In this document: one piece after another, positions 5,301 through 35,219 of the stretch | Layout of the letters: each line of letters begins with the position of its first letter | Position numbering within the stretch: the first letter of the stretch is position 1 | From: an uncultured Alistipes sp. | GTDB lineage: Bacteria; Bacteroidota; Bacteroidia; Bacteroidales; Rikenellaceae | DNA length: 35,219 nucleotides | Assembly (NCBI GenBank): GCA_944321955.1 | Contig: CALUNG010000021.1 | Span: 1 to 35,219 of the forward strand | Direction: 5' to 3' | Translations under genes and position numbers: made by a program | The notes under the pieces: generated by a model | Told to the model about the DNA's origin: nothing | What the model saw: only the letters and a program-made list of their open reading frames with translations | Database searches by the model: none

Positions 5301-5440
5301 CCAAATATTCGGGTTACGACCCCGAAGTCAGCCAGTGGGACAGCGCCACGCAGATGGGTGTAGACTGGGGAACATACCCCAACGTACGCACGGTAGTGGT
5401 CGGACTCAATATTACCATGCAAACATCCTCTAAAAAATAA
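2375..5440 (+). CDS. SusC-type TonB-dependent outer-membrane transporter (PUL 1)
   Basis: Imports oligosaccharides across the outer membrane, powered by TonB; 1021 aa, a normal SusC length. A signal peptide ends near AMAQ (about residue 35). A carboxypeptidase-D-regulatory-like domain follows (about 38-115, with GTVTDQSGQPVIGATV and a SSLGY turn). The TonB-box/plug region starts at VVAIGYGTVKQKD, and the plug has the family motifs VRGASSI, PLFVVDGVPV and AAIYGSRAANGVVLITTK. The remainder is a beta-barrel ending in an aromatic-rich C-terminus. The SusD gene starts 5 bases after the stop, so the two are surely cotranscribed. Odd feature: nine consecutive G residues at 2611-2619 encode the end of a Lys codon and Gly-Gly-Gly (codons 79-82), where a slip would abolish the protein. 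The substrate, beta-1,6-glucan, is inferred from the enzymes next to it. Confidence 0.97.
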   Translation: MTSFNSKLRPERLNGYRTLLFTALFILFGTAAMAQEEVTVTGTVTDQSGQPVIGATVVEDGTTNGTATGLDGTYTLKIKGGGSSAPTLTYSSLGYVDQKIPVNGRTLIDVKLTESAVELDAVVAIGYGTVKQKDITTAVSIVKTDDLDRRPISSVSAALQGKAAGVQVVQPNGAPGQGMVIRVRGASSIYSASTNEPLFVVDGVPVGTGSSAIAYLSPNEIETMQVLKDASSAAIYGSRAANGVVLITTKQGSAKKGPEVTFSTYVGISQVTKNYDVLNAQQYRDLMEETGAVSGLPDVIMDVTDWFDETYSNGINQNYQFSISDGNDKSSYYLGGGYTSEKGVIRTTSADRYNVKASFDRKIFKWLSASASTTFSHYSSKGSIISGQGANRAGVVVSAITTPTYAPIWDPENPDQFYNNFYGANLTSPRENMARTDYDKYITDRLILSGNLNFFLAKGLTFKSTVTMDRSWAHNSTFLDPIRTTHGRTEHGTASDTRSDDWRMVYDNILTWQAKFNRHSLELMGGTSATVSVWEQLTGSRSYFSTTNGNAITNINGGNNGGLRGQSVSKDEWSIMSYLARVSYNYDDRYLLTANFRADGSSKLSPGNRWGFFPSVSAAWRISQEKFLKDVMWINDLKLRVGWGQTGNQSGLTSYGWMQLYNTNYYNWTEDAYTQAVPTVGSKSNIQNKDLTWETTTQTNVGVDFSVLNSRLSFTLDLYYKYTKDMLMSVPMPSPYPNIIRNEGEMSNMGIEFQISSVNIARKDFTWTTDFNISANRNRLEKLDLQQVYYYAKTADVVNDFVIRMTPGQPLSKFWGYISDGVDPETGDLIYRDINGDGDITPSDKTWIGDANPKFTFGMTNTFSWKGLSLSILLTGSYGNDIFNASRIETEGMYNGNNQTTTVLRRWRIPGQITDVPRATTDAYNVKNSTRWVEDGSYLKVKNITLSYDITSPKLRRAYIARIQPYISLQNFITWTKYSGYDPEVSQWDSATQMGVDWGTYPNVRTVVVGLNITMQTSSKK
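2611..2619 (+). repeat. Poly-G (9 G) tract inside the SusC 1 reading frame
   Basis: Nine G residues occupy the end of codon 79 to codon 82 of the transporter. Gaining or losing one G would shift the frame and stop translation early, before the plug domain. The tract is in frame in this copy. Confidence 0.85.
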
Positions 5441-5445
5441 CTGTC

Positions 5446-6987: not shown

Positions 6988-7006
6988 CGGATAATACGAT
7001 CAGAAA

Positions 7007-8527: not shown

Positions 8528-8539
8528 AAAACCAAAACC

Positions 8540-10606: not shown

Positions 10607-10628
10607 AGGTTAGCAATTCATTCTGCGC

Positions 10629-10658
10629 GGAGTGTGCGGTCCGCGGACCGCACACTCC
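10629..10658. repeat. Perfect 30-bp palindrome between binding protein and GH3 genes
   Basis: GGAGTGTGCGGTCCG (10629-10643) is followed immediately by its exact reverse complement (10644-10658). In RNA this gives a strong hairpin with at most a small CGCG-type loop. Only TT follows, so it is not a typical intrinsic terminator. It lies 22 bases after the stop of the binding-protein gene and 26 bases before the GH3 ATG. It may block 3' exonucleases, cut GH3 expression, or bind a dimeric protein as DNA. Confidence 0.8.
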
Positions 10659-10684
10659 TTACAACCACGCATTCACATCTCAAC

Positions 10685-12919: not shown

Positions 12920-12993
12920 GCGTCGGCGCCGCATGGCGCACAACGCCCGATAACGAAAGAGAATAGAAAAACCGCTAAAACCAATTGAACCTT

Positions 12994-15339: not shown

Positions 15340-15371
15340 CAAGGGCGTCCGACACATGTCGGACGCCCTTG
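15340..15371. terminator. Hairpin between convergent GDPD and GH89 genes
   Basis: CAAGGGCGTCCGAC (15340-15353) pairs with GTCGGACGCCCTTG (15358-15371) around the loop ACAT: 14 perfect base pairs. The T tracts are weak on both sides (TCTCACATT on plus, TTGTTG on minus), but the place, midway between convergent genes, suits a bidirectional terminator. Confidence 0.6.
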
Positions 15372-15391
15372 TCTCACATTATGGCATCAAA

Positions 15392-22371: not shown

Positions 22372-22453
22372 CACACCCCGCCCGAAGCGGGTCCCGGAAG
22401 CCTTTCACGCAGGCAAATCCGATTTTATCGTAAAAATGAATTATATTGTCGTT

Positions 22454-22499
22454 TCGGTAAAACGGCATGGAGTAATTTTATCATCGGAAAAACGACATG
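22454..22499 (+). promoter_or_regulatory. Direct-repeat pair upstream of the BACON-SusCD locus (candidate HTCS operator)
   Basis: TCGGTAAAACGGCATG (22454-22469) and TCGGAAAAACGACATG (22484-22499) agree at 14 of 16 positions, and their starts are exactly 30 bases apart, about three helical turns. AraC-type HTCS regulators commonly bind direct repeats. The 7-of-8 -7-like octamer TAATTTTA (22473-22480) lies between the copies. The region (22372-22596) holds no gene. Confidence 0.5.
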
Positions 22500-22596
22500 C
22501 ACGAAAGATACCCGCAGCGACCCGCCGTGCCATGGTCGGACCCGGAACGAAACAACGAAACAAACAGAATAAATCTAACCTTAAACACCAGCTTCA

Positions 22597-23691
22597 ATGA
22601 AAAAATTTCTACTTTTACTCATGATGGGTGCCCTCGGATTCACCGCCTGCACGAAAGACGGCGACGGCGATTCCGTCACTTCAATAACTCTCGGCACGCC
22701 TTCGCAAACCGCGTTCGACTACAAGGGAGGTCTGGGCAGCGTCGAGGTATATGCCGGCAGCAAGAGCGTTACGGCCGAATCCAGCGCTCCGGACTGGTGC
22801 CGCGTAACGGTTTTCGACAACAAGTCGGTTGCCTTCAATCTCTACCAGAACTCCGATCCCAACAACGAGCGCAGCGCGACAATCACCGTTAAGGCCGAAG
22901 GCCTGCCTTCGGTACATTTCGACGTTACGCAGGACCGTCTCCGCGGAATCATCGTATCGCCTACCGTGGTGAACTTCTCTTCGGAGCAGCTCACACAGTC
23001 CATCGAAGTGCTCGCGTCGGGCGATTACACCATAGTCGCTGACGTCAACCCCGACAATACCTTTACATGGGAAAAGAGCGCCAACGGCCGCTCGGTAACA
23101 TTCTCGTCGCAGGACCCCGGCTTCTATGTAGTCGAAGGCCGCGTGAGCCTGGTACCCGAAGAGGGCGAAGGTGAGCCCGTGGCAATCACGCTCCTGCTCG
23201 AGAAGATGAACACCTACGACCTGCTTCTGGGTGAATGGGAAGTCACCACGACAGACGACGAAAAGCTCACACGCGTGATATTCACCGAAAAGGTATGGGG
23301 ATACACCTATAACGTATATCTGCAGGGCATCCCGCAGGTCGGCGACAACTACCCCGTAACCATGGAGTATATCGACGGCAAGGTCTACCTGCCGACCGGA
23401 CAGTCGCTCGGTTTCGACGGTACATATTATTATACGCTGCACTTCAACGGCCGCAACAGCGGCAGCGGCTGGAATACATGGACGGCGCCCGGAGCCTGCT
23501 CGTGGGTATCCGACGTCAACGTCGACGAACTCACCAGAAAGATAACCCTCTCGTTCGCGGACAGCAGCGGCGGTTACGGATATCAGGCCGAAGACCTCAC
23601 CTTCTGGAAATGTAAGGGCGGATACTTCAGCTTCAGCACCGGTGAGAACATCTTCTATTCAACCAAACTCGACATCGTCAAAAACTATTAA
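22597..23691 (+). CDS. BACON-domain surface lipoprotein of unknown function
   Basis: Predicted lipoprotein of 364 aa with Cys 18 (FTAC). Residues about 28-115 form a BACON-type beta-domain (VEVYAGSKSVTAE, PDWCRVTV, NNERSATITVKAEG, FDVTQD). A second Ig/BACON-like segment covers about 118-208 (VSPTVVNFSSEQLTQSIEV). The last 155 residues begin LLLGEWEVTTTDDEKLTRV, are rich in Tyr, Trp and Gly, and resemble a lipocalin-like or DUF5004-like beta-barrel, though I cannot name the family. It is the first gene after the HTCS, behind the direct-repeat pair, and is followed by SusC 2 after 96 bases. BACON domains are associated with glycan or mucin binding, so a surface ligand-binding role is likely. 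No catalytic motif is seen. Confidence 0.78.
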   Translation: MKKFLLLLMMGALGFTACTKDGDGDSVTSITLGTPSQTAFDYKGGLGSVEVYAGSKSVTAESSAPDWCRVTVFDNKSVAFNLYQNSDPNNERSATITVKAEGLPSVHFDVTQDRLRGIIVSPTVVNFSSEQLTQSIEVLASGDYTIVADVNPDNTFTWEKSANGRSVTFSSQDPGFYVVEGRVSLVPEEGEGEPVAITLLLEKMNTYDLLLGEWEVTTTDDEKLTRVIFTEKVWGYTYNVYLQGIPQVGDNYPVTMEYIDGKVYLPTGQSLGFDGTYYYTLHFNGRNSGSGWNTWTAPGACSWVSDVNVDELTRKITLSFADSSGGYGYQAEDLTFWKCKGGYFSFSTGENIFYSTKLDIVKNY

Positions 23692-23787
23692 CATGTCCCG
23701 CATACCTTTGCCCGGGCCCGTACGACGCATCGACACCACGGACGTCGCCGGTCCCGGACGAAAGGGACAAAACCCAATTTGCCGCTC

Positions 23788-26700
23788 ATGAAAAAAATCA
23801 TAATACTCACCCTGATGTTCACCGGGATGCTCGGGTATGCCCTGGCCCAGGATTCCCGCGTGGTGACGGGTCGCGTGCTCGACGAGAACGGTATGCCGAT
23901 GATGGGCGCCGTCGTCGAGGTCCTCGGTACAAACAACGCGACGACCACCGACATCGAAGGTATATACACGCTCAAGGGCGTACCCGAAACCGCTACCCTG
24001 CGTGCCTCGTTCCTCGGATACGAGAACGTCGACAAAAAGGCCGACGACGTACGCATAGACTTCGAACTGAAGGCCAGCACCCAGGAGATCGCATCGGTCG
24101 TGGTAACCGGTATGCAGAAGATGGACAAGCGTATCTTTACCGGAGCCACCGACCAGCTCATGGCCGAAGACGTCAAACTCAACGGTGTGGGCGAAATCAG
24201 CCGAAGCCTCGAGGGACGTTCGGCCGGCGTATCGGTACAGAACGTGTCGGGTACGTTCGGCGCCGCACCCAAGATCCGCGTACGCGGTGCATCGTCGATA
24301 TACGGCGACTCCAAGCCGCTGTGGGTTGTCGACGGAGTGATCATGGAGGACGTGGTCGACGTCGACGCCAACTCTCTATCGTCGGGCGACGCCACAACGC
24401 TTATCAGTTCGGCCATCGCAGGCCTCAACGCCGAAGATATCGAGAGCTTCCAGATCCTCAAGGACGGTTCTGCTACATCGATATACGGAGCCCGCGCCAT
24501 GGCCGGAGTGATCGTCATCACCACCAAGAAGGGTCGTGCAGGTGAAACCCGCGTAAGCTACACGGGCGAATATACCATGCGCATGGTCCCCTCCTACGCC
24601 AACTTCAACATCATGAACTCGCAGGAGCAGATGGCCGTCTATCAGGAGATGTTCGACAAGGGATGGCTCAACTATGCCGACAAGATGTTCTCGTCCGAAA
24701 GCGGCGTCTACGGCAAGCTGTCGCAGCTGATCAACTCGTACGACCCCGAGACCGGTTACGGTGTGCCCAACACCGAAGAGGGGCGCAACGCCTACCTGCG
24801 CAAGGCCGAATACCGTAATACCGACTGGTTCAAGGAGCTCTTCCGTCCGAGCGTACAGCACTCCCACTCGGTGAGCATCTCGTCCGGTTCGGAAAAGGGT
24901 TCGTACTATGCATCGCTCGGCGCCCTGGTCGATCCGGGATGGACCGTGCAGAGCAAGGTGAACCGCTACACCGCGCTGTTCAACACCACGCAGAACATCC
25001 TCAAGGACAAACTCTCGCTCAACATCATAGCCAACGCTTCGTACCGCCAGCAGACGGCTCCGGGTTCGCTCTCGTCGGAGGTGGATCCCGTCTACGGTAC
25101 CGTGACGCGCTACTTCGACATAAACCCCTACTCGTATGCCCTGCGCACGTCGCGTACGCTCGACCCCGATGAATACTACACGCGCAACTACACGCCGTTC
25201 AACATCAAGGACGAGCTGTCGAAGAACTACATGGACCTGAACGTCGTAGACACCAAGTTCCAGGCCGAACTCAAGTGGAAGATCACCCCGAAACTCGAGG
25301 TGTCGGCCCTCGGAGCCGTCAAGTACTCGACCTCGTCGACCGAACACCACATAAAGGAGGGTTCGAACCAGGCCGAAGCATACCGCATGATGGACAACTC
25401 CACCATACAGGCACTCAACCCCTACCTCTACGACAACCCCGACATCTCCTCGGAGAAGTACTCGATACTGCCCGAAGGAGGTATCTACCGCCGCAACGAC
25501 TACCGTTCGCTCAGCTACGACTTCCGTGCGTCGGTAAGCTACAACAACATATTCGACGACAAGCACATATTCAACTTCTACGCCGCCACCGAGATCAACG
25601 CCCTCAACCGTTCGTCGTCGTCGTTCACGGGCTGGGGTCTGCAGTACGCCATGGGCGAGTCGCCGTACTACATACTCGACCTCTTCAAGAAGCAGATCGA
25701 GGACAACACGCAGTATTACGGCATCTCGAACACCCGCGAACGCAACGCCGCCTTCGCCGCTACGGCATCCTACTCGTACGACTACCGCTACACCATCAAC
25801 GGAACAATACGCTACGAAGGATCGAACCGTCTGGGACGTTCGCGCAAGGCCCGCTGGCTCCCGACATGGAACGTTGCCGGCAAGTGGTCGGTGGATCAGG
25901 AGGACTTCTTCGAGAAGCTGATGCCCGCATTCTCGACCCTCGCGCTGCGCGTATCGTACTCGCTGACGGCCGACCGCGGTCCCTCGTGGGTCAGCAACTC
26001 GACCGTGACGATCTATCCGACGTCACCGTGGCGCGGCGATACCGACATTACCGAATCGGGACTGGGCATTTCGGCCATCGAGAACTCGGAACTCACCTAT
26101 GAGAAGAAACACGAGCTGAACATAGGTCTGGACATGGGATTCCTCGACAACCGCATATCGCTCTCGATCGACGCCTACAAGCGAAACAACTTCGACCTCA
26201 TAGGCAACACCATAACCATGGGTCTGGGCGGCTTCATTAACAAATACGGCAACGTGGCTGCCATGAAGTCGAGCGGTGTCGAGCTGTCGCTCTTCACGCG
26301 CAACATCCAGCGCAAGGATTTCTCGTGGGAGACCAGTTTCATCTTCTCGTGGATGAAGAACACGGTTACGCGTCTCGATACGCTCACCCGCACCATCGAC
26401 TTCCTGACGGGTACCGGTTACTCGATGGAGGGCTATCCGCGCGGAGCGCTCTTCTCGCTCAACTTCCAGGGTCTCGACCACATGGGCATACCGACTTACA
26501 AGCTCGGTGACGGAACGATCACCTCGACCGGCGTCAACTTCCAGGGTGCCGCCGAGGAGGCGGGTCTGGTATACGAAGGCCCCTGCGACCCGACGTACAC
26601 CGGCAGCTTCGGTAACATATTCCGCTACAAGGGATTCACGCTCAATATCTTCATCACCTATTCGGGCGGTAACAAGGTGCGTCTCGACCCCATCTTCGCA

Positions 26701-27105
26701 AGCAGCTATTCGGACCTCACGGCCACGCCGCGCGAGTTCGCCGACCGCTTCATCAACCCGGGCGACGAGAAGCGCACGAACATCCCCGTAATAGCCAGCG
26801 CGCGTCAGGTCAACGAGATACCGAATCTCTACATAGCCTACAACGCCTACAACTACAGCACGGCACGTGTGGCCAACGGCGACTTCATCCGCATGAAGGA
26901 GATATCGCTGACCTACGACTTCCCCAAGTCGATAGCCTCGAAACTCCGCATGAGCGGACTCTCGCTCAAGCTTCAGGCCACCAACCCGTTCCTGATCTAC
27001 TCCGACAAGAGGCTTCAGGGACAGGACCCCGAGTTCTTCAACACGGGAGGTGTGGCCACGCCTATGCCCAAACAATTCACCATGACGCTCAGAGTTAGTT
27101 TCTAA
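23788..27105 (+). CDS. SusC/RagA-type TonB-linked outer-membrane transporter (locus 2)
   Basis: TonB-dependent importer, 1105 aa from the ATG at 23788; an in-frame TTG at 23779 would add three residues and is less likely. The signal peptide ends at ALAQ (residue about 21). A carboxypeptidase-like domain (about 25-100, GRVLDENGMPMMGAVVEV, SFLGYENV) precedes the TonB box region (IASVVVTGMQKMDKR) and the plug (VRGASSIYGDSKPLWVVDGV, SIYGARAMAGVIVITTKKG). The barrel ends QFTMTLRVSF. It is longer than SusC 1 and diverges from it in the plug. The SusD gene follows 18 bases downstream. With two protease genes and no sugar hydrolase behind it, the load is more likely peptide or glycopeptide, as for RagA, than free sugar; this is inferred. 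Confidence 0.96.
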   Translation: MKKIIILTLMFTGMLGYALAQDSRVVTGRVLDENGMPMMGAVVEVLGTNNATTTDIEGIYTLKGVPETATLRASFLGYENVDKKADDVRIDFELKASTQEIASVVVTGMQKMDKRIFTGATDQLMAEDVKLNGVGEISRSLEGRSAGVSVQNVSGTFGAAPKIRVRGASSIYGDSKPLWVVDGVIMEDVVDVDANSLSSGDATTLISSAIAGLNAEDIESFQILKDGSATSIYGARAMAGVIVITTKKGRAGETRVSYTGEYTMRMVPSYANFNIMNSQEQMAVYQEMFDKGWLNYADKMFSSESGVYGKLSQLINSYDPETGYGVPNTEEGRNAYLRKAEYRNTDWFKELFRPSVQHSHSVSISSGSEKGSYYASLGALVDPGWTVQSKVNRYTALFNTTQNILKDKLSLNIIANASYRQQTAPGSLSSEVDPVYGTVTRYFDINPYSYALRTSRTLDPDEYYTRNYTPFNIKDELSKNYMDLNVVDTKFQAELKWKITPKLEVSALGAVKYSTSSTEHHIKEGSNQAEAYRMMDNSTIQALNPYLYDNPDISSEKYSILPEGGIYRRNDYRSLSYDFRASVSYNNIFDDKHIFNFYAATEINALNRSSSSFTGWGLQYAMGESPYYILDLFKKQIEDNTQYYGISNTRERNAAFAATASYSYDYRYTINGTIRYEGSNRLGRSRKARWLPTWNVAGKWSVDQEDFFEKLMPAFSTLALRVSYSLTADRGPSWVSNSTVTIYPTSPWRGDTDITESGLGISAIENSELTYEKKHELNIGLDMGFLDNRISLSIDAYKRNNFDLIGNTITMGLGGFINKYGNVAAMKSSGVELSLFTRNIQRKDFSWETSFIFSWMKNTVTRLDTLTRTIDFLTGTGYSMEGYPRGALFSLNFQGLDHMGIPTYKLGDGTITSTGVNFQGAAEEAGLVYEGPCDPTYTGSFGNIFRYKGFTLNIFITYSGGNKVRLDPIFASSYSDLTATPREFADRFINPGDEKRTNIPVIASARQVNEIPNLYIAYNAYNYSTARVANGDFIRMKEISLTYDFPKSIASKLRMSGLSLKLQATNPFLIYSDKRLQGQDPEFFNTGGVATPMPKQFTMTLRVSF

Positions 27106-27123
27106 AGAATTTCCGTAAGAACC

Positions 27124-28791
27124 ATGATAAATATCAAGAAAACAGCGTTCAGCATACTTGTGGCCTGCTCGTGCCTCTGCATGCTTCCGGCATGCGGCGA
27201 GTTCCTCGACGAGCTGCCCGACAACCGTGCGGAACTCGACACGGAGGAGAAGATATACAAACTGCTGGTATCGGCATATCCGGACCGTTCGTTCACACGC
27301 ATGTGCGAGTTGTCGTCGGACAACGTCGACGACATGGGCGAAGAGTTCGACTACTCGCGACTGCTGGAACAGATAGCCCTCTGGACCGACATCATCGACG
27401 CCGAAAACGAGAGCAACCAGAACATCTGGGAGAACTACTTCACGGCGATAGCCCACGCCAACACGGCGCTCGAAGCCATCGAGAAGCTCGGCACCCCCAC
27501 AACACTGCTGCCCGCCAAGGGCGAAGCTCTGATGTGCCGTGCATACTCGTACTTCTGCCTGACGATGATGTACTGTCTGCCATATCATCCCGAGAAGAGT
27601 TCGGAATACCTCGGCCTGCCATATCTGACCGAACCCGAAACCACGCTCAACCCCAAATACGAGCGCGGCAACCTCAAGGATGTCTACGAACACATCGCCG
27701 CCGATATCGAGGAGGCCCTGCCGCTCATCGACGACAACGTCTATTCGGTACCCAAGTACCACTTCAACCGCAGTGCCGCATACGCCTTCGCCGCACGCTT
27801 CTACCTCTACTACATGAAGTGGGACCGCGTCATCGAGTGCGCAAACGAGGTACTGGGCAGCGACCCGTCGCTCGTGTTGCGCGACTGGACCGACGCCTCG
27901 AAGGTCGATTGGGGACGTCAGGCGTTCGACTACATCGACTCGTCGCACGAATTCAATCTGATGCTCATAGCGCTGGTGTCGAACAACGGCAACATCTTCA
28001 ATGCATGGAGCAACTCAGGTTCGCGCTTCACCCACAACTACCGCATATCGAAGCAAGAGACCTATCGTGCCAAACGGCCGATGGGAGGCCGTTACGACAT
28101 CGGCGGAAACATGACAATGACCATGTATCAGTACGAACCGTACCACAACGACAACTGCATGAAAATATACATGCCCAAATGGCCGTCGCAGTGGGAGGTT
28201 ACCGACGCCATTACGGGCGTTGGTATCGGACGCTCGACGATGGTGGCCTTCACCACCAACGAGACGCTGCTCTGCCGTGCCGAGGCCTACATCCATCTCA
28301 AGCAGTACGATCTGGCCGTCGCCGACCTCGACATGTGGAACTGCTCGTACTACAAGGTAGGCGAAAACGGCGTCGAGCACCTAACGCGCGAACGCATCAA
28401 CGATGTCTACGGAAACCCCAACTCCGAAGACTACATCGCCGAATATACATCCACAGCCCCCACGTCACGCAAGCCCCTGCATCCGCACGGCTTCACAGTC
28501 GAGCCCGGCGAACAGGAGTACATGATACAGTGCCTGCTCTTCTGCCGCCGCATCGAGACCATCGCCGACGGTCTGCGCTGGGGTGACATCAAGCGTTACG
28601 GCATCGTCATCGACCGCTTCGACAACACCAACTACGACGACAGCAGGACATCCGGCTTCCAGGTTGCCGACACCCTCGACGAAACAGACCTGCGCCGCGC
28701 CCTGCAGCTGCCGCTCGATGTCCGCTATGCCGGTCTGGAGGGCAACCCGCGCAATGCCGATGCCCCAAACCACCCGTTCCGTCAACAATAA
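27124..28791 (+). CDS. SusD/RagB-family lipoprotein (locus 2)
   Basis: Surface lid and ligand-binding lipoprotein of the second SusC, 555 aa. The lipobox is LPAC with Cys 24. TPR-like helices are visible (ALMCRAYSYFCLTMMYCLPY, HFNRSAAYAFAARFYLYYMK). The SusD pattern continues with LGLPYLTEPET, TTNETLLCRAEAYIHLKQYD and FCRRIETIADGLRWGDIKRY, and ends in the short LPLDVRYAG segment that replaces the usual LPIP. An extended region with GRYDIGGNMTMTMY is not typical of glucan-binding SusD proteins. It is followed by the metalloprotease gene after 22 bases. What it binds is unknown. Confidence 0.93.
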   Translation: MINIKKTAFSILVACSCLCMLPACGEFLDELPDNRAELDTEEKIYKLLVSAYPDRSFTRMCELSSDNVDDMGEEFDYSRLLEQIALWTDIIDAENESNQNIWENYFTAIAHANTALEAIEKLGTPTTLLPAKGEALMCRAYSYFCLTMMYCLPYHPEKSSEYLGLPYLTEPETTLNPKYERGNLKDVYEHIAADIEEALPLIDDNVYSVPKYHFNRSAAYAFAARFYLYYMKWDRVIECANEVLGSDPSLVLRDWTDASKVDWGRQAFDYIDSSHEFNLMLIALVSNNGNIFNAWSNSGSRFTHNYRISKQETYRAKRPMGGRYDIGGNMTMTMYQYEPYHNDNCMKIYMPKWPSQWEVTDAITGVGIGRSTMVAFTTNETLLCRAEAYIHLKQYDLAVADLDMWNCSYYKVGENGVEHLTRERINDVYGNPNSEDYIAEYTSTAPTSRKPLHPHGFTVEPGEQEYMIQCLLFCRRIETIADGLRWGDIKRYGIVIDRFDNTNYDDSRTSGFQVADTLDETDLRRALQLPLDVRYAGLEGNPRNADAPNHPFRQQ

Positions 28792-28813
28792 TGTAAAAAA
28801 TGAAGATCAAGAT

Positions 28814-29704
28814 ATGAAAAAGACGTTTTTCAAACCTTACCTGCTTGCCGCTCTCTGCGCATCGACGCTGCTGGTATCGTGCTTCAAGGAGGAGCTGAAT
28901 CCCACGAGCGTCATCGTCGACACGGAAGAGGTGAAAAGTCAGTTCGACCTTTGGCTCGAACGCCACTACGTCGAACCCTACAACGTGAACTTCGAATACC
29001 GCATGCCTGACCGCGAAACCCACTTCAACTACTGGGTTACGCCGCCGCCAATCGACAAGTCGATCGAGATAGCCAAGCTCATCAAGTTCGTACTGCTCGA
29101 CGGCATGTCCGAACTGATGTCCGATGAGGAGAACCCCACGCTTCTGGCCAAGACCTACTTCCCGCGACTGCTCTTTCTGGTGGGCAGCTACGAGATGGAC
29201 AGCAACAACACGGTAGTACTCGCTTCGGCCGAGAACGGCATACAGATCAACCTGTTGGGAGTCAATTATTTCGACCGCGAGACCGGATGTTCCGGCATCA
29301 CCGGCACGATGATCCACGAGTTCGCCCACATCCTCGACGGCAACATTGCCGTCCCCATCGAATTCGACCTCATCACCAAGGACGGATATATAGGCGACTC
29401 GTACAGCAGCGCCCCGAACGACTATCTCGAGAACGGATTTCTGAGCAACTACGCACGCTCGACACCGGCCGAGGACATAGCCGTGACGACGGCCGCCCTC
29501 GTCGGCGAGACCCCCGAATGGTGGGAATCGACTCTCAACTCGATAAAGAACGCTGAAGCCCGCGCCAAGATCGAAAAGAAACGCGACATGATCATCTCGT
29601 GGCTCAAGAGCGAATTCTCGATCGACGTCTACAAATGGCGCGACATCTACCAGGGCCGCCTCAATCGTGTCGGTGAAATAGACTGGTACAACCTTGACGA
29701 TTAA
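28814..29704 (+). CDS. Peptidase_Mx1-type zinc metalloprotease lipoprotein
   Basis: Putative zinc-binding metallopeptidase of 296 aa, probably on the cell surface. The ATG at 28814 is chosen because it begins a clear lipoprotein signal (LVSC, Cys 23); a longer in-frame opening upstream overlaps the SusD gene and lacks a signal. The zinc motif is His 168-Glu-Phe-Ala-His 172, and Glu 220 in the downstream PAEDIA motif fits the distal ligand region of this family. Such proteins are usually found next to SusCD with DUF4302 proteins, as here. It might cut proteins at the cell surface to supply SusC 2. The family is recognised from motif and context, not from a search. Confidence 0.85.
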   Translation: MKKTFFKPYLLAALCASTLLVSCFKEELNPTSVIVDTEEVKSQFDLWLERHYVEPYNVNFEYRMPDRETHFNYWVTPPPIDKSIEIAKLIKFVLLDGMSELMSDEENPTLLAKTYFPRLLFLVGSYEMDSNNTVVLASAENGIQINLLGVNYFDRETGCSGITGTMIHEFAHILDGNIAVPIEFDLITKDGYIGDSYSSAPNDYLENGFLSNYARSTPAEDIAVTTAALVGETPEWWESTLNSIKNAEARAKIEKKRDMIISWLKSEFSIDVYKWRDIYQGRLNRVGEIDWYNLDD

Positions 29705-29723
29705 CAAACCCGAACCGCACAAG

Positions 29724-30683
29724 ATGAAACACATAACCAACATAGTGGCTCTACTGGCAGCAACACTGCTGCTGGCCACATCATGCCGCTCGGACGATTC
29801 GATTTTCGAAGAGTCGGCCGCCGAACGCATACAACAGGGACTGGATTTTTACGAAAAGGCACTGCTCGACGGTCAGACATGGATCATGGAGTACTTCCCC
29901 AGCGAGGACCTCAAATACGGAGGATGGATCTATGTACTCACCTTCAATGCCGACCATAACGTACGCGCCTGGTTCGAAGGCGAGACCTTCGTCGACGACC
30001 AGAACTATCTCGAGACGCCCTACGCCGTCGAGTATTCGACCGGTCCGATGCTCAAGTTCGTCAACTTCAACTCGTTCCTGCACTACTTCGCGATGCCCAA
30101 CTACGAGCACGGATATCAGGGACTCGAAGGCGAATACGAATTCTCGTTCCTTGGCATAACGGCCGAGCCCGAGATCCTGCTCTACGGAATCAAGACCGAC
30201 AAGACGATGAAACTGCGTCTGCTGCCGGGCGACTACACCCCCGAGGAGTATGTCGAGGCCGTACGCGAAAGCCAGCGCATCGTCCGTCCCACGACCCTCA
30301 AGCTTATGGTCAACGGCAAGGAGTACGGTACGCTCACGCGCGCCAACGCCTTTCAGGATGACACGTTCGAGGGATACATGCAGAGCAAGGTATGGACCTT
30401 ATCCTACAACTACCGACAGCAGCAAACCGACCCGACCGGTGCTCCGGTATACGACGACGAAGGCAATCCCGTCTACGAGGAAGTGGCCGTCAACGACCGG
30501 CTGTCGTTCATACACTATCCCGACAACACGATGAAGCTCTACGAGCCCTACACATTCAAGGGCGAATTGGAGGGCCTCTCGGGACAGACCATGCAGACGC
30601 TCGAGTGGAAGATCGGAACCGCTCCGCTTTCGGACAAGTTCGTGTGTCTGGATTCGTTCCTCGAGATCGAGTTCGTACAGTAA
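29724..30683 (+). CDS. DUF4302-type lipoprotein
   Basis: Lipoprotein of 319 aa, lipobox LATSC with Cys 21. The start at 29724 gives a proper signal peptide; an in-frame TTG at 29694 overlaps the protease gene. The start of the mature protein (SDDSIFEESAAERIQQGLDF, then WIMEYFP, GGWIYVLTFN) is the hallmark of the DUF4302 family, which travels with Peptidase_Mx1 and SusCD. Later segments include PYAVEYSTGPMLKFVNFNSF and a C-terminal beta-rich region. No catalytic motif is visible, and the function of the family is unknown. A substrate-binding or accessory role in the surface complex is likely. It lies 19 bases after the protease gene and before a terminator-like hairpin. Confidence 0.85.
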   Translation: MKHITNIVALLAATLLLATSCRSDDSIFEESAAERIQQGLDFYEKALLDGQTWIMEYFPSEDLKYGGWIYVLTFNADHNVRAWFEGETFVDDQNYLETPYAVEYSTGPMLKFVNFNSFLHYFAMPNYEHGYQGLEGEYEFSFLGITAEPEILLYGIKTDKTMKLRLLPGDYTPEEYVEAVRESQRIVRPTTLKLMVNGKEYGTLTRANAFQDDTFEGYMQSKVWTLSYNYRQQQTDPTGAPVYDDEGNPVYEEVAVNDRLSFIHYPDNTMKLYEPYTFKGELEGLSGQTMQTLEWKIGTAPLSDKFVCLDSFLEIEFVQ

Positions 30684-30710
30684 GTTCATGATTATGTTTC
30701 AATCATACGG

Positions 30711-30743
30711 GTCCGGAGGCCGGCAACGGCTTCCGGACATTTT
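30711..30743 (+). terminator. Intrinsic terminator or attenuator between DUF4302 and S8 genes
   Basis: GTCCGGAGGCCG (30711-30722) pairs with CGGCTTCCGGAC (30727-30738), one G-U pair included, around a GCAA tetraloop; ATTTTC follows. The hairpin is 12 bp and stable. It ends 17 bases before the S8 start, so it may lower read-through into the last two genes. Confidence 0.65.
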
Positions 30744-30755
30744 CGCAATTAAAGG

Positions 30756-33107
30756 ATGAAACGATACCTCATACTGCCCATGATGTTGCTGGCGTGGGGA
30801 TGCACCGCCGAGATGCCGGTGCACACGGCAGCACCCGAAGCCCCGACCGAGGAGGAGATCTGCATCGGCGGCGTGTTCCGCGTAAAACTCGCCGATACGG
30901 CCGCCGATCTCGACACCGGAGCCTTCACCCGCAACGGAGGTTCGGGAAACCTCGGATTCGACATGGCGGCGGCGCGTGTCGGGGCCACATCGCTCGAGAG
31001 AGTCTTTGCCGACGGCGGCCGTTTCAGCGAACGGCGCCGCAAGGCAGGTCTTCATCTGTGGTACAGCGTACGCTTCGACGCCGACATACCGGTAAGCGAG
31101 GCCATCCGCCGCTTCGGCATGCCCGAAGGCGTGGCATGCGTCGAGCCTGTTTACCGCATGGTGGCGGCCTGGGAGAACGAACCGCGAGCCGCGGCGAATG
31201 CCGCCGGCGAGCCCTCGATCACCTTCAACGACCCTCTCTCTTCGAACCAATGGTATCTGCTCAATGACGGGTCGCTTACCGGCAGCGTTGCCGGAGCCGA
31301 CATCGGCGCGGCGGCCGCATGGAGCGTTGCGACGGGCCGCAACGACGTAATCGTGGCGGTGAACGACGGCGGCATAGACTACACCCATCCCGACATTGCA
31401 GCCAACATGTGGGACGACGGCGAGGGTCACTGCGGCTACAACTTCAACATGCACACCTACGACATAACCCCCAGCGACCACGGTACAGCCGTGGCTGGCA
31501 TAATCGGGGCCGTCAGCAACAACGGCACGGGCATCTGCGGCATAGCCGGGGGTGACGGCAGCGAAGGCAGCGGCGTGAAGCTGATGAGCTGTCAGGTCTT
31601 CGACGATGAGGGGAGCACCGACATCGTCGAGCTGATGGCATGGTCGGCCGACCACGGGGCCGTCATCAGCCAGAACAGCTGGAACTACGTGGGTCTCACC
31701 GATCTTTCGCAGGCGGGCAAGGATGCCATCGACTACTTCATCGAATATGCCGGCTGCGACGAGAACGGCAACCAGACCGGTCCCATGAAGGGCGGCATCG
31801 TCATCTTCTCGGCCGGCAACGAGAACATCGGCACACCGCAATATCCGGCCGCCTACGAACCTGTAATAGCGGTGGCGGCACTCGGTGCCGACATGCGCAA
31901 GGCCGACTATTCGAACTACGGTTCATGGGTCGACATCGCGGCTCCGGGCGGCGACGCCAACGACGGCAGCGAACGCTACATGATCTATACCCTCGGCGTG
32001 GACGGGCACTACGGCTACACGTCGGGAACATCACTGGCCAGTCCGATGGTTGCGGGCATGGCGGCTCTGGCCGTCGCCAGATACGGCGGTCCGGGCTTTA
32101 CAAGCGAGATGCTCAGGGAGCTGATTTTGGGATCGGGACGCCGCGAGCAGACCGAAGCGTGCAATCCGCAACATGCGGGCGAACTGGGCGCCGGTCTGAT
32201 CGACGGAGAGTACATCTTCTACCGCGACGCGCGTCCGCAACCCGTAACTGCGGTCGAGGCCGAAGGCTACCGCTCGCGGCTGCAGCTCTCATGGCAGGTT
32301 ACGGCCGACCACTTCGGCCGCCCGGTAAAGGCATACGACATCTACGTGTGCGACGAGGACTTCACGGCCGGTACGGTCGAAGAGATTCCGGCCTCGGCCA
32401 AAGTGTACCACGCCGACTGCGGCGAAGTCTCGCTCGGCGAGGAGGTATCCTTCTCGGCCGACGGGCTGCAGCCGATAACCGGCTACCACTGCGCCATCGT
32501 TGCTGTCGGCAAGTACGGTACGGCATCGCTTCCCATGCAGTTCGAGGCCGCCACGTCGGACAATACGCCGCCCGAAGCTACCATGGCCCTGCCCGACATC
32601 TTCCTCAGCAGCAGCAATACGGATGGCATAACCATTCCGCTCGACGGATATTTCCACGACGACGATGCCCCGGACGATACGCTGACGTACTTCGTGTCGT
32701 TCGACGGCAGCAGCACGGTCGAAGGGCGTCTCGACGGCACGGAGTTGCTGCTCAGACCGCGTGCGACGGGACTTGCGACAGTCACGGTCATAGCACAGGA
32801 CAGCAACGGCGCGAAGGCTTCGTCGCCCATGAGGATTACGGTCGACGGAACGGGTGCCACGGTGGAGCTCTTCCCAAATCCGTGCGACGACCGTCTCAAC
32901 ATACGCATTCCGGGTGCTACGGGCGACTTCCGCATGGAGTTCCGCGACCGCTCGGGACGTTACGTCTACGGCGCAACCGTGACCGTAGGCCCCGAAGAGA
33001 ACGGCAATACGGGCTGGCTGAACGTCTCGGGACTCGCTCCGGGCGTCTATACCTGCACGGTCGACTACTTCGGTCAACGCATCGAACACGACATCATCAA
33101 ACGATGA
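30756..33107 (+). CDS. Subtilisin-like S8 protease with T9SS C-terminal sorting tail
   Basis: Serine protease of 783 aa. It has an SPII-like start (AWGC, Cys 16), then a prodomain-like region (about 35-140: GVFRVKLADTAADL, VEPVYRM). The S8 catalytic domain runs from about 150 to 490. The triad is complete: Asp 204 (VAVNDGGIDYTHPD, where most have DTG or DSG), His 242 (DHGTAVAG), Asn 355 of the oxyanion hole (FSAGNEN) and Ser 426 (TSGTSLASPMVAG). Next come fibronectin-III-like (about 495-600) and cadherin-like (about 605-700) segments. The last 80 residues are a type-A T9SS sorting domain (VELFPNPCDDRLNIRI, LAPGVYTCTV, ending in DIIKR). It overlaps the next gene by 4 bases if the latter starts at 33104. 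It may digest proteins outside the cell for the SusCD importer. Confidence 0.92.
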   Translation: MKRYLILPMMLLAWGCTAEMPVHTAAPEAPTEEEICIGGVFRVKLADTAADLDTGAFTRNGGSGNLGFDMAAARVGATSLERVFADGGRFSERRRKAGLHLWYSVRFDADIPVSEAIRRFGMPEGVACVEPVYRMVAAWENEPRAAANAAGEPSITFNDPLSSNQWYLLNDGSLTGSVAGADIGAAAAWSVATGRNDVIVAVNDGGIDYTHPDIAANMWDDGEGHCGYNFNMHTYDITPSDHGTAVAGIIGAVSNNGTGICGIAGGDGSEGSGVKLMSCQVFDDEGSTDIVELMAWSADHGAVISQNSWNYVGLTDLSQAGKDAIDYFIEYAGCDENGNQTGPMKGGIVIFSAGNENIGTPQYPAAYEPVIAVAALGADMRKADYSNYGSWVDIAAPGGDANDGSERYMIYTLGVDGHYGYTSGTSLASPMVAGMAALAVARYGGPGFTSEMLRELILGSGRREQTEACNPQHAGELGAGLIDGEYIFYRDARPQPVTAVEAEGYRSRLQLSWQVTADHFGRPVKAYDIYVCDEDFTAGTVEEIPASAKVYHADCGEVSLGEEVSFSADGLQPITGYHCAIVAVGKYGTASLPMQFEAATSDNTPPEATMALPDIFLSSSNTDGITIPLDGYFHDDDAPDDTLTYFVSFDGSSTVEGRLDGTELLLRPRATGLATVTVIAQDSNGAKASSPMRITVDGTGATVELFPNPCDDRLNIRIPGATGDFRMEFRDRSGRYVYGATVTVGPEENGNTGWLNVSGLAPGVYTCTVDYFGQRIEHDIIKR

Positions 33108-33124
33108 ACGAAATACCTTGCACA

Positions 33125-34105
33125 ATGAGACAACACTCCATATTGAGATATGCGGCGGCCACCATGCTGACAATTGCCGGCTGCCACGCCGCCACGGCGC
33201 AGGAGAACGTCGCCTCGATGCCGTTCCTGCGCATGGAGACCGATGCTCGCACCGCCGGCATGGGCGGTGCAGGGTCGCTGCTGCCCGACAATCCGGCCGC
33301 CATATACGGCAACGCCGCCGCAATTGTATTGGGCGACACGCATGCAGGCGCCGAACTCTTTACCGGCCCGTGGGGCAATGCCGCGTCGGACAGCGGCCAT
33401 GACGCCCTCTACGGCGCTGCCGGATACTGGAAACCTGACGCGCGGAACGGCATAGTCGCCGGCGTACGCTACTACGGCGGCAGCCGCCTGGCGCTGAGCG
33501 ACGATGCGGGATTTCCGGCCGGCACGGCACGTCCGTGGGACCTCTCGGCCGAAGCCGGCTATGCACGCCGTTTCGGCAAGCACGTGGCCGTATCGCTCAC
33601 CGCCCGATACATGCGTTCCGACTTCGGAACGGACATAGCCCCGATGCAGGGAGTTGCATTCGACGTGGGGGCCGCATTCCGCGGCAGCATGGGGTCGCAG
33701 CGCAGGTTTTCGTGGCTTGCCGGTATCCACATCTCCGACATAGGCCCCAATCTCAAAGGGTCGGACGGCACTGCCCTGCACCTGCCTTCACGCGTGTCAA
33801 TAGAGGGAGCTTTGCTGATGCCTTTCAGCAAAAACCATGAGATAAACATGGCCGCCGATGCCGGTTGCTGCTTCTACGGAGGCGAAATCTACGCATCGCT
33901 CGGTGCCGAATACCGGTTTCTGCGTCACGGTGTCATACGGGCCGGATACCACGTCGAGAGCAGCAGCGGCGCAGGCAACTATCTCTCGGTAGGTTGCGGA
34001 TTCTCGGTCGGACCGGTGCATTGCAATGCGGCATACCGTCTCGGAGGCTCCGATACCGACCCGCGGAACAACAGCGTTGTAGTATCGGTAGGATTCGTGC
34101 TCTGA
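33125..34105 (+). CDS. PorV/PorQ-family outer-membrane protein
   Basis: Predicted beta-barrel of 327 aa in the PorV/PorQ family, whose known members help the type IX secretion system pass and attach tailed cargo. The start MPFLRMETDARTAGMGGAG after the signal is the family hallmark, followed by alternating beta-strands with a C-terminal GFVL. The start at 33125 gives a standard signal (RQHSILRY..., cleavage near ATAQ). An alternative ATG at 33104 overlaps the S8 stop as ATGA and adds seven residues; translational coupling makes it possible. The signal also contains IAGC, a lipobox match, which is unusual for a barrel. Linked to a T9SS-tailed protease, it is a good candidate for a dedicated partner of that protease. 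Whether it is PorV- or PorQ-like is unsure. Confidence 0.8.
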   Translation: MRQHSILRYAAATMLTIAGCHAATAQENVASMPFLRMETDARTAGMGGAGSLLPDNPAAIYGNAAAIVLGDTHAGAELFTGPWGNAASDSGHDALYGAAGYWKPDARNGIVAGVRYYGGSRLALSDDAGFPAGTARPWDLSAEAGYARRFGKHVAVSLTARYMRSDFGTDIAPMQGVAFDVGAAFRGSMGSQRRFSWLAGIHISDIGPNLKGSDGTALHLPSRVSIEGALLMPFSKNHEINMAADAGCCFYGGEIYASLGAEYRFLRHGVIRAGYHVESSSGAGNYLSVGCGFSVGPVHCNAAYRLGGSDTDPRNNSVVVSVGFVL

Positions 34106-34116
34106 CGAACCCGGCA

Positions 34117-34160
34117 TGAAAAAGAGCCGCCCCACTCGAATGAGTGGGGCGGCCCGTTTA
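34117..34160 (-). terminator. Terminator between PorV-like and FISUMP genes
   Basis: GCCGCCCCACTC (34126-34137) pairs perfectly with GAGTGGGGCGGC (34142-34153) around GAAT. On the minus strand TCTTTTTC follows the hairpin, so it ends the FISUMP transcript well. On the plus strand only CCGTTTATA follows, so termination of the PorV gene is likely but weaker. Confidence 0.75.
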
Positions 34161-34174
34161 TATACGACGAGTGG

Positions 34175-35219
34175 CTACTCTATTCTGACGCATCGTACGG
34201 GATAACCGAACGAGGTGATGTAATGACCCGTCTCGAAGGTTATGGTACGGCTGCCCATGCCCGTCTCTTCATCAATGACATTGGCGCTGAGCTTGATATA
34301 GGCAACACCCGACTCGCTGCCGCTGATAAGCGTCGAGGAGGGAAGATGATATCGTATTTCAGCCGCATCATCGCCGTAGATGGCATTCGCATCGGGAGAC
34401 CCTCCGTAGTTGCGCATCGAGTAGGCGAGAAAATCGTGTCCGTCAATCTTCACTACCTGACCGGTGGTAGTGTCCAACTCGGCAACGGCATCGGTCGTCA
34501 GCGCCGTCCATGCATTGTGCGTCATCACGCGCCAACCCGCAGGACACGGATCGTAGATGGTCTTGGAGGCGAACGCATCGTCATCGCTCCAGACATCGCC
34601 GATAAAGCCGTTGGGCAGATAGTGCCAATTGAAGATGTCGCTCGACTTCGAGGCCCAGCGGTGAGGCGCCTTGGCGTCGAGGAAGGCGAAGAGCTCCTGT
34701 CCCGTATATTCGGTGCCGATCAGATCCTGGAAGAAGACACCGATCGTCTCGCGCGAACGTCCGAATATCTGGTTGTAGATACCAGTGTTGTTGACGTTCC
34801 CGTAATCCAGTGCCGGTACTGGCGTATAGGTCGGCGTAAACCACAACGGATTGTAGGCCGACGGACGGTAGCTGTACTCCATGAGCGTCGGGAAGGGATC
34901 CTTGCGCCCGTACTGGTAGTAGTTGCCCAGAGCCTGATAGAGCAGCACGTTGTTGACCTTGCCGTCGATTACGGCCTGCTCGGGATCGATAAGAGCACCG
35001 ATATTGCGGTTCATGAACGTATAGCCGCCCTTGCTGAAGGCCGTAGCCTCGTAGTCGTATCCCTCGGCCGCAACGATGTTCCAGCTCCAAAGTACGTTGG
35101 TGTTGGTAAAGGTGTGATACGTCGACTCGACCTCGATCTGGTCGTAGTCGAGATCCTCGTCGATGGCGACAATCAGGGCGTTGCCCGGAACAAATTCGGC
35201 CGGCGTCTGGAAGTAGATG
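34175..35219 (-). CDS. FISUMP-domain surface protein, C-terminal part only
   Basis: The frame stays open to the window edge, so the 5' end is missing; about 348 residues are present. A methionine at 35014 is inside the domain and is not the start, because the upstream sequence (for example YHTFTNTNVLWSWNI, then GYTFMNRNIGAL) continues the fold. Hallmarks of the FISUMP family (Fibrobacter succinogenes major paralogous domain) are FMNRNIGA, LGNYYQYGRKDPFP, IYDPCPAGWRVM and the end GYPVRCVRIE. Bacteroidetes often use this domain at the end of large surface or fimbrial-tip-type proteins. The function here is unknown. It is convergent with the protease locus and belongs to another transcript. Confidence 0.85.
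   Translation of the reverse strand, partial: IYFQTPAEFVPGNALIVAIDEDLDYDQIEVESTYHTFTNTNVLWSWNIVAAEGYDYEATAFSKGGYTFMNRNIGALIDPEQAVIDGKVNNVLLYQALGNYYQYGRKDPFPTLMEYSYRPSAYNPLWFTPTYTPVPALDYGNVNNTGIYNQIFGRSRETIGVFFQDLIGTEYTGQELFAFLDAKAPHRWASKSSDIFNWHYLPNGFIGDVWSDDDAFASKTIYDPCPAGWRVMTHNAWTALTTDAVAELDTTTGQVVKIDGHDFLAYSMRNYGGSPDANAIYGDDAAEIRYHLPSSTLISGSESGVAYIKLSANVIDEETGMGSRTITFETGHYITSFGYPVRCVRIE

What the first reader, a model, noticed from the sequence alone, without database searches (positions are those of the whole stretch)
22372..34105. SusCD locus coupling two protease classes, DUF4302 and a T9SS/PorV pair under an HTCS
Gene order is HTCS, BACON lipoprotein, SusC/RagA, SusD/RagB, Peptidase_Mx1-type zinc protease, DUF4302, T9SS-tailed S8 protease, PorV-like protein. 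No glycoside hydrolase is inside it. Seen: the motifs and order. Known: RagAB-type SusCD can import peptides, and PorV supports T9SS cargo. Inferred: a surface machine that digests proteins or glycoproteins and imports the peptides, controlled by an HTCS of the kind usually tied to glycans. This is the best candidate in the window for a poorly described system.
Basis: partly seen in the sequence, partly recalled or inferred. Interest (0 to 1): 0.75.

Follow-up and report, generated by a model that had tools for sequence, protein, structure and literature searches.

The report
Glycoprotein-eating locus with leftover secretion pair
A gut bacterium's gene cluster looks built to cut up glycoproteins at the cell surface and import the pieces, and it carries a protease and a membrane barrel that resemble parts of a secretion machine whose main channel was not found in this organism.

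Summary
The reported genes and order are real. The order HTCS, BACON lipoprotein, SusC, SusD, Mx1, DUF4302, S8, PorV-like recurs in 6 of 80 fetched Mx1 loci (Alistipes, Candidatus Cryptobacteroides, other Bacteroidales); three more fit but are cut by contig ends. The core SusC-SusD-Mx1-DUF4302 is in 79 of 80, so that part is a common, already named module (TIGR04549). The HTCS link gains a conserved box in the HTCS-BACON gap. A divergent GH89 gene (15392-17953, minus), outside the given coordinates, belongs to the locus.

The T9SS reading fails: the translocon SprA was found in 0 of 120 genomes of this family (139 of 149 in the order) and the sortase PorU passes its cut-off in 0 of 61. Yet S8 proteases with a T9SS-type tail persist with a PorV-fold barrel. 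All 37 examined carry a lipoprotein-type signal and a C-terminal lysine; all 16 genomes with such tails have a PorV-family gene, against 18 of the other 104.

Best reading: an HTCS-controlled glycoprotein locus whose protease is a surface lipoprotein docked by its tail on a stand-alone PorV-type barrel. Docking, surface exposure and substrate are inferred.

The parts
15392..17953 (-). GH89 alpha-N-acetylglucosaminidase (NAGLU), lipobox-like N-terminus (LLLPSC), divergent from the HTCS
   Evidence: PF05089 E 4e-115, PF12972 E 5e-49, PF12971; same place in Alistipes sp. An66 (L080/L238) and upstream of BACON in L166 and L167; nearest solved 4xwh, 363 bits
18214..22371 (+). hybrid two-component system regulator (HTCS), 1385 aa
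   Evidence: Reg_prop x9, Y_Y_Y, HisKA, HATPase_c, Response_reg, HTH_18 all over cut-off
22421..22447 (+). conserved box GATTTTATCSTAAAWATGRAYRATWTT, candidate HTCS operator
   Evidence: only match in the window, expected 0.00; aligned in the HTCS-BACON gap of window + 7 loci; strict form in 6 of 80 Mx1 loci, all of them cassettes
22597..23691 (+). BACON lipoprotein, 364 aa
   Evidence: PF13004 31 bits over 25; lipobox GFTA|CTKDGD
23788..27105 (+). SusC/RagA TonB-dependent transporter
   Evidence: TIGR04056 619 bits over 368, TIGR04057
27124..28791 (+). SusD/RagB lipoprotein
   Evidence: PF14322 E 5e-38, PF07980
28814..29704 (+). Peptidase_Mx1 zinc metallohydrolase lipoprotein, HEFAH
   Evidence: PF15890 E 1e-64; TIGR04549 E 2e-65; solved relatives 9urd, 4l7a; HEFAH
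29721..30683 (+). DUF4302 lipoprotein, short form (320 aa)
   Evidence: PF14135 E 1e-32; found with Mx1 in 80 of 80 loci; AF2 pLDDT 85.7, no PDB fold match at E <= 1e-3
30756..33107 (+). S8 subtilase, lipoprotein-type signal LLAWG|CTAEM, motifs NDGG/HGT/GTSL, T9SS type-A-like C-terminal domain ending IIKR
   Evidence: PF16361, PF00082; tail 28.2 bits; motifs; lipobox and Lys
33125..34105 (+). PorV-type outer-membrane barrel, 326 aa
   Evidence: NF033709 167 bits over 90, NF033710 134 below 250; AF2 pLDDT 89.9; Foldseek best 8gl6_F and 6h3i_F (chain identity as PorV is recalled)
34175..35218 (-). convergent fimbrillin-like/Fib_succ_major protein (cut by window end); Mfa_like and GDSL genes sit here in relatives; loosely linked
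   Evidence: PF09603 18 bits, below its cut-off; 187 bits to the Mfa_like/Fib_succ protein in the same place in An66

Best explanation
The locus is an HTCS-controlled glycoprotein or glycopeptide utilisation system of gut Bacteroidales. A ligand, probably a released glycan, is sensed in the periplasm by the HTCS, which binds the conserved box before BACON and turns on the BACON-to-PorV operon and perhaps the divergent GH89 gene. On the surface GH89 trims terminal alpha-GlcNAc, the Mx1 and S8 lipoproteins cut the protein, BACON and DUF4302 bind substrate or brace the complex, and SusCD imports the fragments. The S8 reaches the surface as a lipoprotein. Its T9SS-type tail is not a secretion signal here, because no translocon was found; [quoted passage not shown] Shown: gene content, conserved order and box, absence of SprA and PorU from the searches, lipobox and tail on the S8 family, PorV fold, co-occurrence of tail and barrel. 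Inferred: surface exposure, tail-barrel binding, substrate, import of peptides, and HTCS binding to the box.
For: Order in 6 of 80 loci and consistent in 3 contig-cut ones. GH89 in both complete cassettes whose upstream DNA is held (window, An66) and in both HTCS-less variants L166 and L167. Box. SprA in 0 of 120 family genomes against 139 of 149 in the order; PorU over cut-off in 0 of 61, control 11 of 13 SprA+ genomes. 16 of 16 genomes with S8-type tails have PorV_fam over cut-off against 18 of the other 104, Fisher p 7e-11; S8 core seen in 15 of the 16 (G153 in a separate frame; G180 cut by its contig). 37 of 37 S8-tail proteins have a lipobox-like Cys, a Lys in the last five residues and an S8 core match of at least 229 bits. 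PorV fold: best hit is in the CTD-bound T9SS complex 8gl6, TM 0.78, against 0.52 for the chain I take as BamG. PMC10994853 (passages): the near-invariant C-terminal CTD lysine contacts PorV. PMC5562754 (abstract): in porU mutants immature cargo accumulates bound to PorV.
Against: No binding, localisation or substrate data. In T9SS structures SprA contributes more of the CTD interface than PorV (about 1,000 against 850 square angstroms), and the authors note that the lysine's contacts are not conserved and its main role may lie elsewhere (PMC10994853), so PorV alone may bind weakly. The published mark of surface export, two or more acidic residues in the six after the Cys (PMC12578637, passage), is met by 19 of 37 and not by the window S8, which has one. 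The window S8 tail is sub-threshold in Pfam and NCBIfam protein scans. In six genomes of genus g2 the tail genes lie away from the PorV gene. 18 genomes have PorV_fam without a tail over cut-off; 17 PorV-like genes of the window's genus form a clade with no S8 seen in about 1.5 kb of flank, so the barrel has other uses. In one SprA+ genome (L255) tail genes also lie beside a PorV gene. Nothing shows that this SusCD imports peptides. GH89 scores higher with 4xwh (recalled as human NAGLU) than with 2vc9 (recalled as the Clostridium enzyme), 363 against 262 bits, so a heparan-type substrate is open. L166 and L167 keep the locus without HTCS, S8 and PorV, so those are not essential to it.
Confidence: 0.5

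Rival explanations
1. The S8 tail and PorV-like barrel are relics. After T9SS loss the S8 became an ordinary lipoprotein and the tail is just a beta-sandwich domain; the barrel is a general FadL-type porin that travels with it by operon inertia.
For: SprA contributes much of CTD binding in true T9SS (PMC10994853). Tail scores are modest. 17 PorV-like genes of the genus have no S8 seen nearby.
Against: SprA was found in 0 of 120 genomes of the family, so the loss looks old, yet tails keep the terminal Lys in 37 of 37 (partly selected by the tail profile) and tail genes reach 4-8 copies in six genus-g2 genomes, each with a barrel. Same pairing in G106, from another family, also without SprA and PorU matches over cut-off.
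Confidence: 0.25
2. The barrel is a dedicated exporter for the S8 lipoprotein: it flips or threads the tail-bearing lipoprotein to the surface, a two-part secretion system.
For: Co-occurrence and adjacency. FadL-family BamG binds a surface lipoprotein in the Bacteroidota BAM complex (PMC12611786, PMC12578637, passages).
Against: A 14-strand FadL-type barrel is too narrow for a folded protein (recalled). The other lipoproteins of the locus have no such tail or partner. The model matches PorV, a carrier, better than BamG.
Confidence: 0.12
3. A plain glycan-utilisation locus: SusCD imports oligosaccharides released by GH89 and the esterase; the peptidases only clear protein out of the way.
For: HTCS are usually tied to glycans (recalled); GH89 and GDSL genes are linked; among the nearest solved SusCs, 5t3r scores above RagA (5t3r is recalled as a levan SusC).
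Against: In 69 other Mx1 loci the SusC-SusD-Mx1-DUF4302 core stands without a GH89 or GDSL match at E <= 1e-10 in the held flanks, so the core itself is peptidase-linked.
Confidence: 0.3
4. A working T9SS exists but was missed, and the S8 is an ordinary cargo.
For: The genome is 92% complete in 30 contigs. The motor proteins PorK-N were not searched.
Against: SprA 0 of 120 and PorU 0 of 61 over cut-off in the family, 72 and 38 of them at least 90% complete, with working positive controls in the order. The S8s have lipoprotein-type signals.
Confidence: 0.03

Closest known systems
SusCD-Mx1 loci (NCBIfam TIGR04549; B. thetaiotaomicron BT3958-BT3961 region)
   Same: SusC, SusD, Mx1, DUF4302 (79 of 80 loci). 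PMC10434189 lists BT3958-59 as TonB-dependent receptor and SusD and BT3961 as DUF4302 (passages). Six of the 69 generic loci also have a BACON-like match.
   Different: Of the 80, S8 and PorV-like genes were seen only in the window-like loci (7 with both, 2 more with the start of S8); GH89 and GDSL matches only in those and L166/L167. DUF4302 is the short form (320 aa; L172 has 455). That BT3960 is Mx1 is inferred from order, not tested.
Type IX secretion system, PorV and type A CTD cargo
   Same: PorV fold, type-A-like tail with terminal Lys, PorV family match.
   Different: SprA and PorU not found; the protease is a lipoprotein; PorV equivalog cut-off not reached (134 of 250 bits).
BamG-BamH of the Bacteroidota BAM complex
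   Same: FadL-family barrel that binds a surface lipoprotein (PMC12578637, PMC12611786, passages).
   Different: Structure is nearer to PorV than to BamG (TM 0.78 against 0.52); association with BamA not tested.
RagAB of P. gingivalis and BT2263-2264 (peptide-bound SusCD)
   Same: SusCD family; peptide import or binding is reported there (PMC11992087 passages).
   Different: Sequence is not specially close (RagA 167, BT2264 97, best 324 bits).

Membership tests
Type IX secretion system | SprA/Sov translocon | tested here: not met
   0 of 1 own genome, 0 of 120 family genomes; control 139 of 149 in the order
Type IX secretion system | PorU sortase | tested here: not met
   0 of 61 family genomes over cut-off, 3 weak partial matches; control 11 of 13 SprA+ genomes, 1 of 12 SprA-
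Type IX secretion system | PorK/L/M/N motor and ring | not tested
Type IX secretion system | cargo with type-I signal peptide | tested here: not met
   37 of 37 S8-tail proteins show a lipobox-like Cys by a simple script; that true cargo has type I is recalled
T9SS type A CTD | Por_Secre_tail profile and terminal Lys | tested here: inconclusive
   window 23.3 bits (cut-off 27) as protein, 28.2 in genome scan; 11 of 15 S8-tail relatives scanned pass; Lys present
PorV/PorQ family (NF033709) | curated score cut-off | tested here: met
   167 bits over 90
T9SS PorV proper (NF033710) | curated score cut-off | tested here: not met
   134 bits, cut-off 250
BamG | fold nearest to BamG | tested here: not met
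   8gl6_F and 6h3i_F rank 1 and 2; 9hiv_F of the BamADG entry ranks 23; which chain is PorV or BamG is recalled or taken from length
HTCS | propeller, Y_Y_Y, kinase, receiver and AraC-type domains in one chain | tested here: met
SusCD pair | TIGR04056 SusC next to SusD-like lipoprotein | tested here: met
TIGR04549 import-associated zinc metallohydrolase | profile cut-off, HExxH, beside SusCD | tested here: met
   221 bits over 75; HEFAH; SusD in 79 of 80 loci
RagAB-type peptide importer | peptide as transported ligand | not testable with these tools
   needs structure or uptake assay; sequence distances do not decide
GH89 | NAGLU N, barrel and C domains | tested here: met

The most novel reading that the evidence does not exclude
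T9SS-less Bacteroidales keep a stand-alone surface-display system: tail-bearing lipoprotein proteases (single genes in operons, or sets of 4-8 per genome) that dock through a T9SS-type CTD on one PorV-type barrel, which sorts or holds them at the outer membrane without translocon or sortase. In this locus it has been recruited to place a protease beside a SusCD importer.
Probability: 0.45. Interest if true: 0.78.

Novelty: new variant of a known kind. Interest (0 to 1): 0.6.

Why it matters
If the pair works as proposed, the CTD-PorV contact can act without T9SS. This would separate carrier from translocon in a system where the two are hard to study apart, and it would warn against reading 'T9SS sorting domain' annotations as proof of T9SS secretion. 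It would also add a tractable locus, in Alistipes sp. An66 (recalled as a cultured chicken isolate), for how gut bacteria take apart glycoproteins with a glycosidase and two proteases.

Tried and rejected
T9SS cargo reading: rejected on SprA and PorU. BamG reading of the barrel: rejected on fold rank. Plus-strand ORF 15356-16945 as a gene: rejected; it and the An66 counterpart are shadows of the minus-strand GH89 gene. DUF4302 function from fold: no match at E <= 1e-3; weak lipocalin-like rows (Bla g 4) were not trusted. Terminators: 9 terminator-like sites found against a mean of 10.9 in shuffles, so the scan as a whole says nothing. Whether the S8-barrel pair also occurs in T9SS+ genomes: I looked only at 15 fetched neighbourhoods of secondary or extra PorV genes in SprA+ genomes (in one, L249, my barrel profile found nothing). 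None holds a strong S8-plus-tail gene; L248, L250 and L255 have weak matches (22-53 bits) that look like tails alone, L252 a weak tail; in L255 they lie beside the PorV gene. This is not a full search. Literature: searches with DUF4302+SusC, 'zinc metallohydrolase lipoprotein', 8YPT/8YPU/9URD, PorV with lipoprotein signal peptide, T9SS with Alistipes or Rikenellaceae, surface lipoprotein export, Mx1/DUF4302/BACON gave no listed title or abstract start, nor any passage I read, describing this locus or a T9SS-free CTD-PorV pair. Only open-licence PMC text was searched. The 80 Mx1 loci are a biased sample: two peptide patterns, best 80 of 86 kept.

Counting notes: L168 is the same contig as G201 and L165 the same as G177, so they are not independent. 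Among the 16 S8-type genomes, G153 has S8 core and tail in separate frames and G180 shows only a tail in a gene cut by its contig; its label 'S8-adjacent' in the tree is assumed. Three tail genomes without PorV_fam over cut-off (G158, G173, G221) were set aside: their tail genes show no S8 core; with them kept the association is 16 of 19 against 18 of 101, p 4e-8. G168 matches the tail only below cut-off and counts on the no-tail side, as does G201, which has the cassette but no tail match. The own genome also has two tail matches below cut-off (E 0.04 and 0.08). One lipobox among the 37 (L154, 9334-9522) was called by script at an early Cys; a likelier one lies five residues on. The terminal Lys is partly selected for by the tail profile itself.
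Full report
What is there. The window lies in a 2.06 Mb genome. From BACON to the barrel they lie on one strand with gaps of 16 to 96 bases; a GC-rich hairpin of 12-14 pairs sits at 34124-34155 between the barrel and the convergent next gene, though terminator-like sites as a whole are no more frequent than in shuffles (9 against 10.9).

A missed part. The gene left of the HTCS is on the minus strand, 15392-17953: a GH89 alpha-N-acetylglucosaminidase with a lipobox-like start. I first mistook its shadow for a plus-strand gene. The same GH89 stands in the same place in An66, and it precedes BACON in two loci (L166, uncultured Bacteroidales; L167, Rikenellaceae) that lack S8 and barrel and in which no HTCS match was seen. 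Upstream DNA of the other complete cassettes was not held. In the other 69 Mx1 loci no GH89 or GDSL match was found at E <= 1e-10 in the held flanks. Downstream, fimbrillin-like and GDSL genes recur: codirectional in L159-L162, convergent in L164 and An66.

How conserved. A scan of one genome for each of 84,980 species with an Mx1 alignment gave 80 loci (best 80 of 86). SusC and SusD are in 79 of 80 (the 80th contig starts at Mx1) and DUF4302 in 80 of 80. This core is therefore common, and its link to import is already in the NCBIfam name TIGR04549. The window's type is rarer: the eight-gene order in L159, L160, L161, L162, L164 and L168; S8 and barrel in L165 with the 5' end cut; S8 start only in L158 and L163, cut by contig ends; L166 and L167 have BACON and the core only; 69 have neither S8-plus-tail nor barrel within the held flanks. 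The HTCS of the fetched cassettes reaches the edge of the held stretch, so only its later part was seen.

Regulation. The HTCS-BACON gap of the window and seven cassettes shares a box of about 27 bases. It occurs once in the window (expected 0.00), and its strict form occurs in 6 of the 80 loci, all cassettes; L159 has a variant. A TA-rich TTTG-like element follows in most, which I recall as the Bacteroidetes -7 motif. The GH30/GH3 locus to the left has no copy, so the HTCS most likely serves the right-hand operon. Binding was not tested.

The T9SS question. SprA is found in 139 of 149 sampled genomes of the order but in 0 of 120 of this family. PorU is over cut-off in 0 of 61 and, in a control set, in 11 of 13 SprA+ genomes and 1 of 12 SprA- ones (G127, 82% complete). 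PorK-N were not searched. The own genome has two tails over cut-off (two more far below it) and two PorV-family genes, and these form two adjacent pairs. In the family, 34 of 120 genomes have a PorV_fam gene over cut-off and 19 of 120 a tail over cut-off. Sixteen of the 19 have PorV_fam; in 15 of these 16 an S8 core goes with the tail (in G153 in a separate frame), and in G180 the gene is cut by its contig. Of the other 104 genomes 18 have PorV_fam (Fisher p 7e-11). The three tail genomes without PorV_fam carry tails without an S8 core. Six genomes of genus g2 carry 4 to 8 tail genes, clustered in five and scattered in G113, away from the barrel gene; the seven of these genes scanned with Pfam (four of G184, one of G113, two of G192) are all S8_N plus S8 plus tail, three of the seven tails being over cut-off.

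The S8 proteins. All 37 examined, from the window, its relatives and g2 genomes, match the window's S8 core (at least 229 bits), start with a lipoprotein-type signal by a simple script, and have Lys in the last five residues. Two or more acidic residues in the six after the Cys, which PMC12578637 (passage) takes as an export signal, are present in 19 of 37; the window S8 has one. Catalytic motifs are present in the eight cassette S8s checked.

The barrel. AlphaFold2 gave a confident model (pLDDT 89.9). Its best solved matches are chain F of 8gl6, the T9SS complex with a bound substrate CTD, and of 6h3i (TM 0.78 and 0.75; recalled as PorV); FadL rows give 0.49-0.60 and 9hiv_F of the BamADG entry 0.52. 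In a tree of 36 barrels those of the window, An66 and G177 form one clade (100/100) and 17 genes with no S8 seen in about 1.5 kb form another (100/99).

Mechanism. In T9SS, PorV carries type A cargo away from the translocon by its CTD, and a near-invariant C-terminal Lys touches PorV, though its contacts vary and the authors suspect another main role for it (PMC10994853, passages). In P. gingivalis porU mutants, immature cargo accumulates bound to PorV (PMC5562754, abstract). An organism without PorU might be expected to keep such a complex. The proposal is that the S8, brought to the surface as a lipoprotein, stays docked on the barrel. Against it: SprA supplies about half of the CTD contact in T9SS. 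No binding was tested here.

Substrate. GH89 enzymes act on GlcNAc-alpha-1,4-Gal of class III mucins (PMC3313936) or on heparosan oligosaccharides (PMC8225759; title and abstract starts in the listing). The window GH89 scores higher with 4xwh than with 2vc9 (363 against 262 bits), recalled as human and Clostridium enzymes. With two protease classes the parsimonious guess is a glycoprotein or proteoglycan; which one is open.

DUF4302 stays unexplained: fair model (pLDDT 85.7) but no solved fold match at E <= 1e-3.

Verdict. The core is ordinary, the cassette is a rare extension with a GH89, and the most unusual part is a T9SS-like tail and PorV-like barrel that persist together where the T9SS translocon and sortase were not found.

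Noticed in passing
window 2375-15312: Separate SusCD locus with GH30, a DUF5016/DUF5125/DUF5121 protein, GH3 and a GDPD protein with BACON and LamG domains; looks like a beta-glucan-type locus (recalled association), no copy of the HTCS box.
   Followed up: partly
window 15356-16945 (+): 529-aa shadow ORF antisense to GH89; a longer antisense ORF lies opposite the GH89 gene of An66.
   Followed up: yes
L032 9149-12614 (own genome, contig C2): Second S8-tail plus PorV-like pair, beside DoxX, YtfJ-like and EptA/sulfatase-type genes.
   Followed up: partly
L145, L146, L154, L157: Clusters of S8-tail lipoprotein proteases (up to 8 per genome) in genomes of genus g2 without SprA, with one PorV_fam gene over cut-off elsewhere in each.
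   Followed up: partly
L047, L049, L052-L064, L107, L108: Clade of 17 PorV-like genes in the window's genus with no S8 seen nearby; partner and role unknown.
   Followed up: no
L034 6178-9968 (G106, another family): S8-tail lipoprotein plus PorV-like pair downstream of BNR-repeat and Calx-beta proteins, also in a genome without SprA and PorU matches.
   Followed up: partly
L084 1229-13674 (G171); S8-barrel pair also in L109 (G186): SusC, SusD, 305-aa protein, S8-tail, PorV-like, a 499-aa protein and a BACON protein: another SusCD plus S8-barrel combination, with no Mx1 match in the stretch.
   Followed up: partly
window 370-2046 (-): DUF6377 protein (PF19904 E 3e-77); a DUF6377 gene also lies upstream of GH89 in L166.
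   Followed up: no
L068 (G153): Mx1 frame with an internal TAA in an 82% complete genome; pseudogene or assembly error.
   Followed up: no
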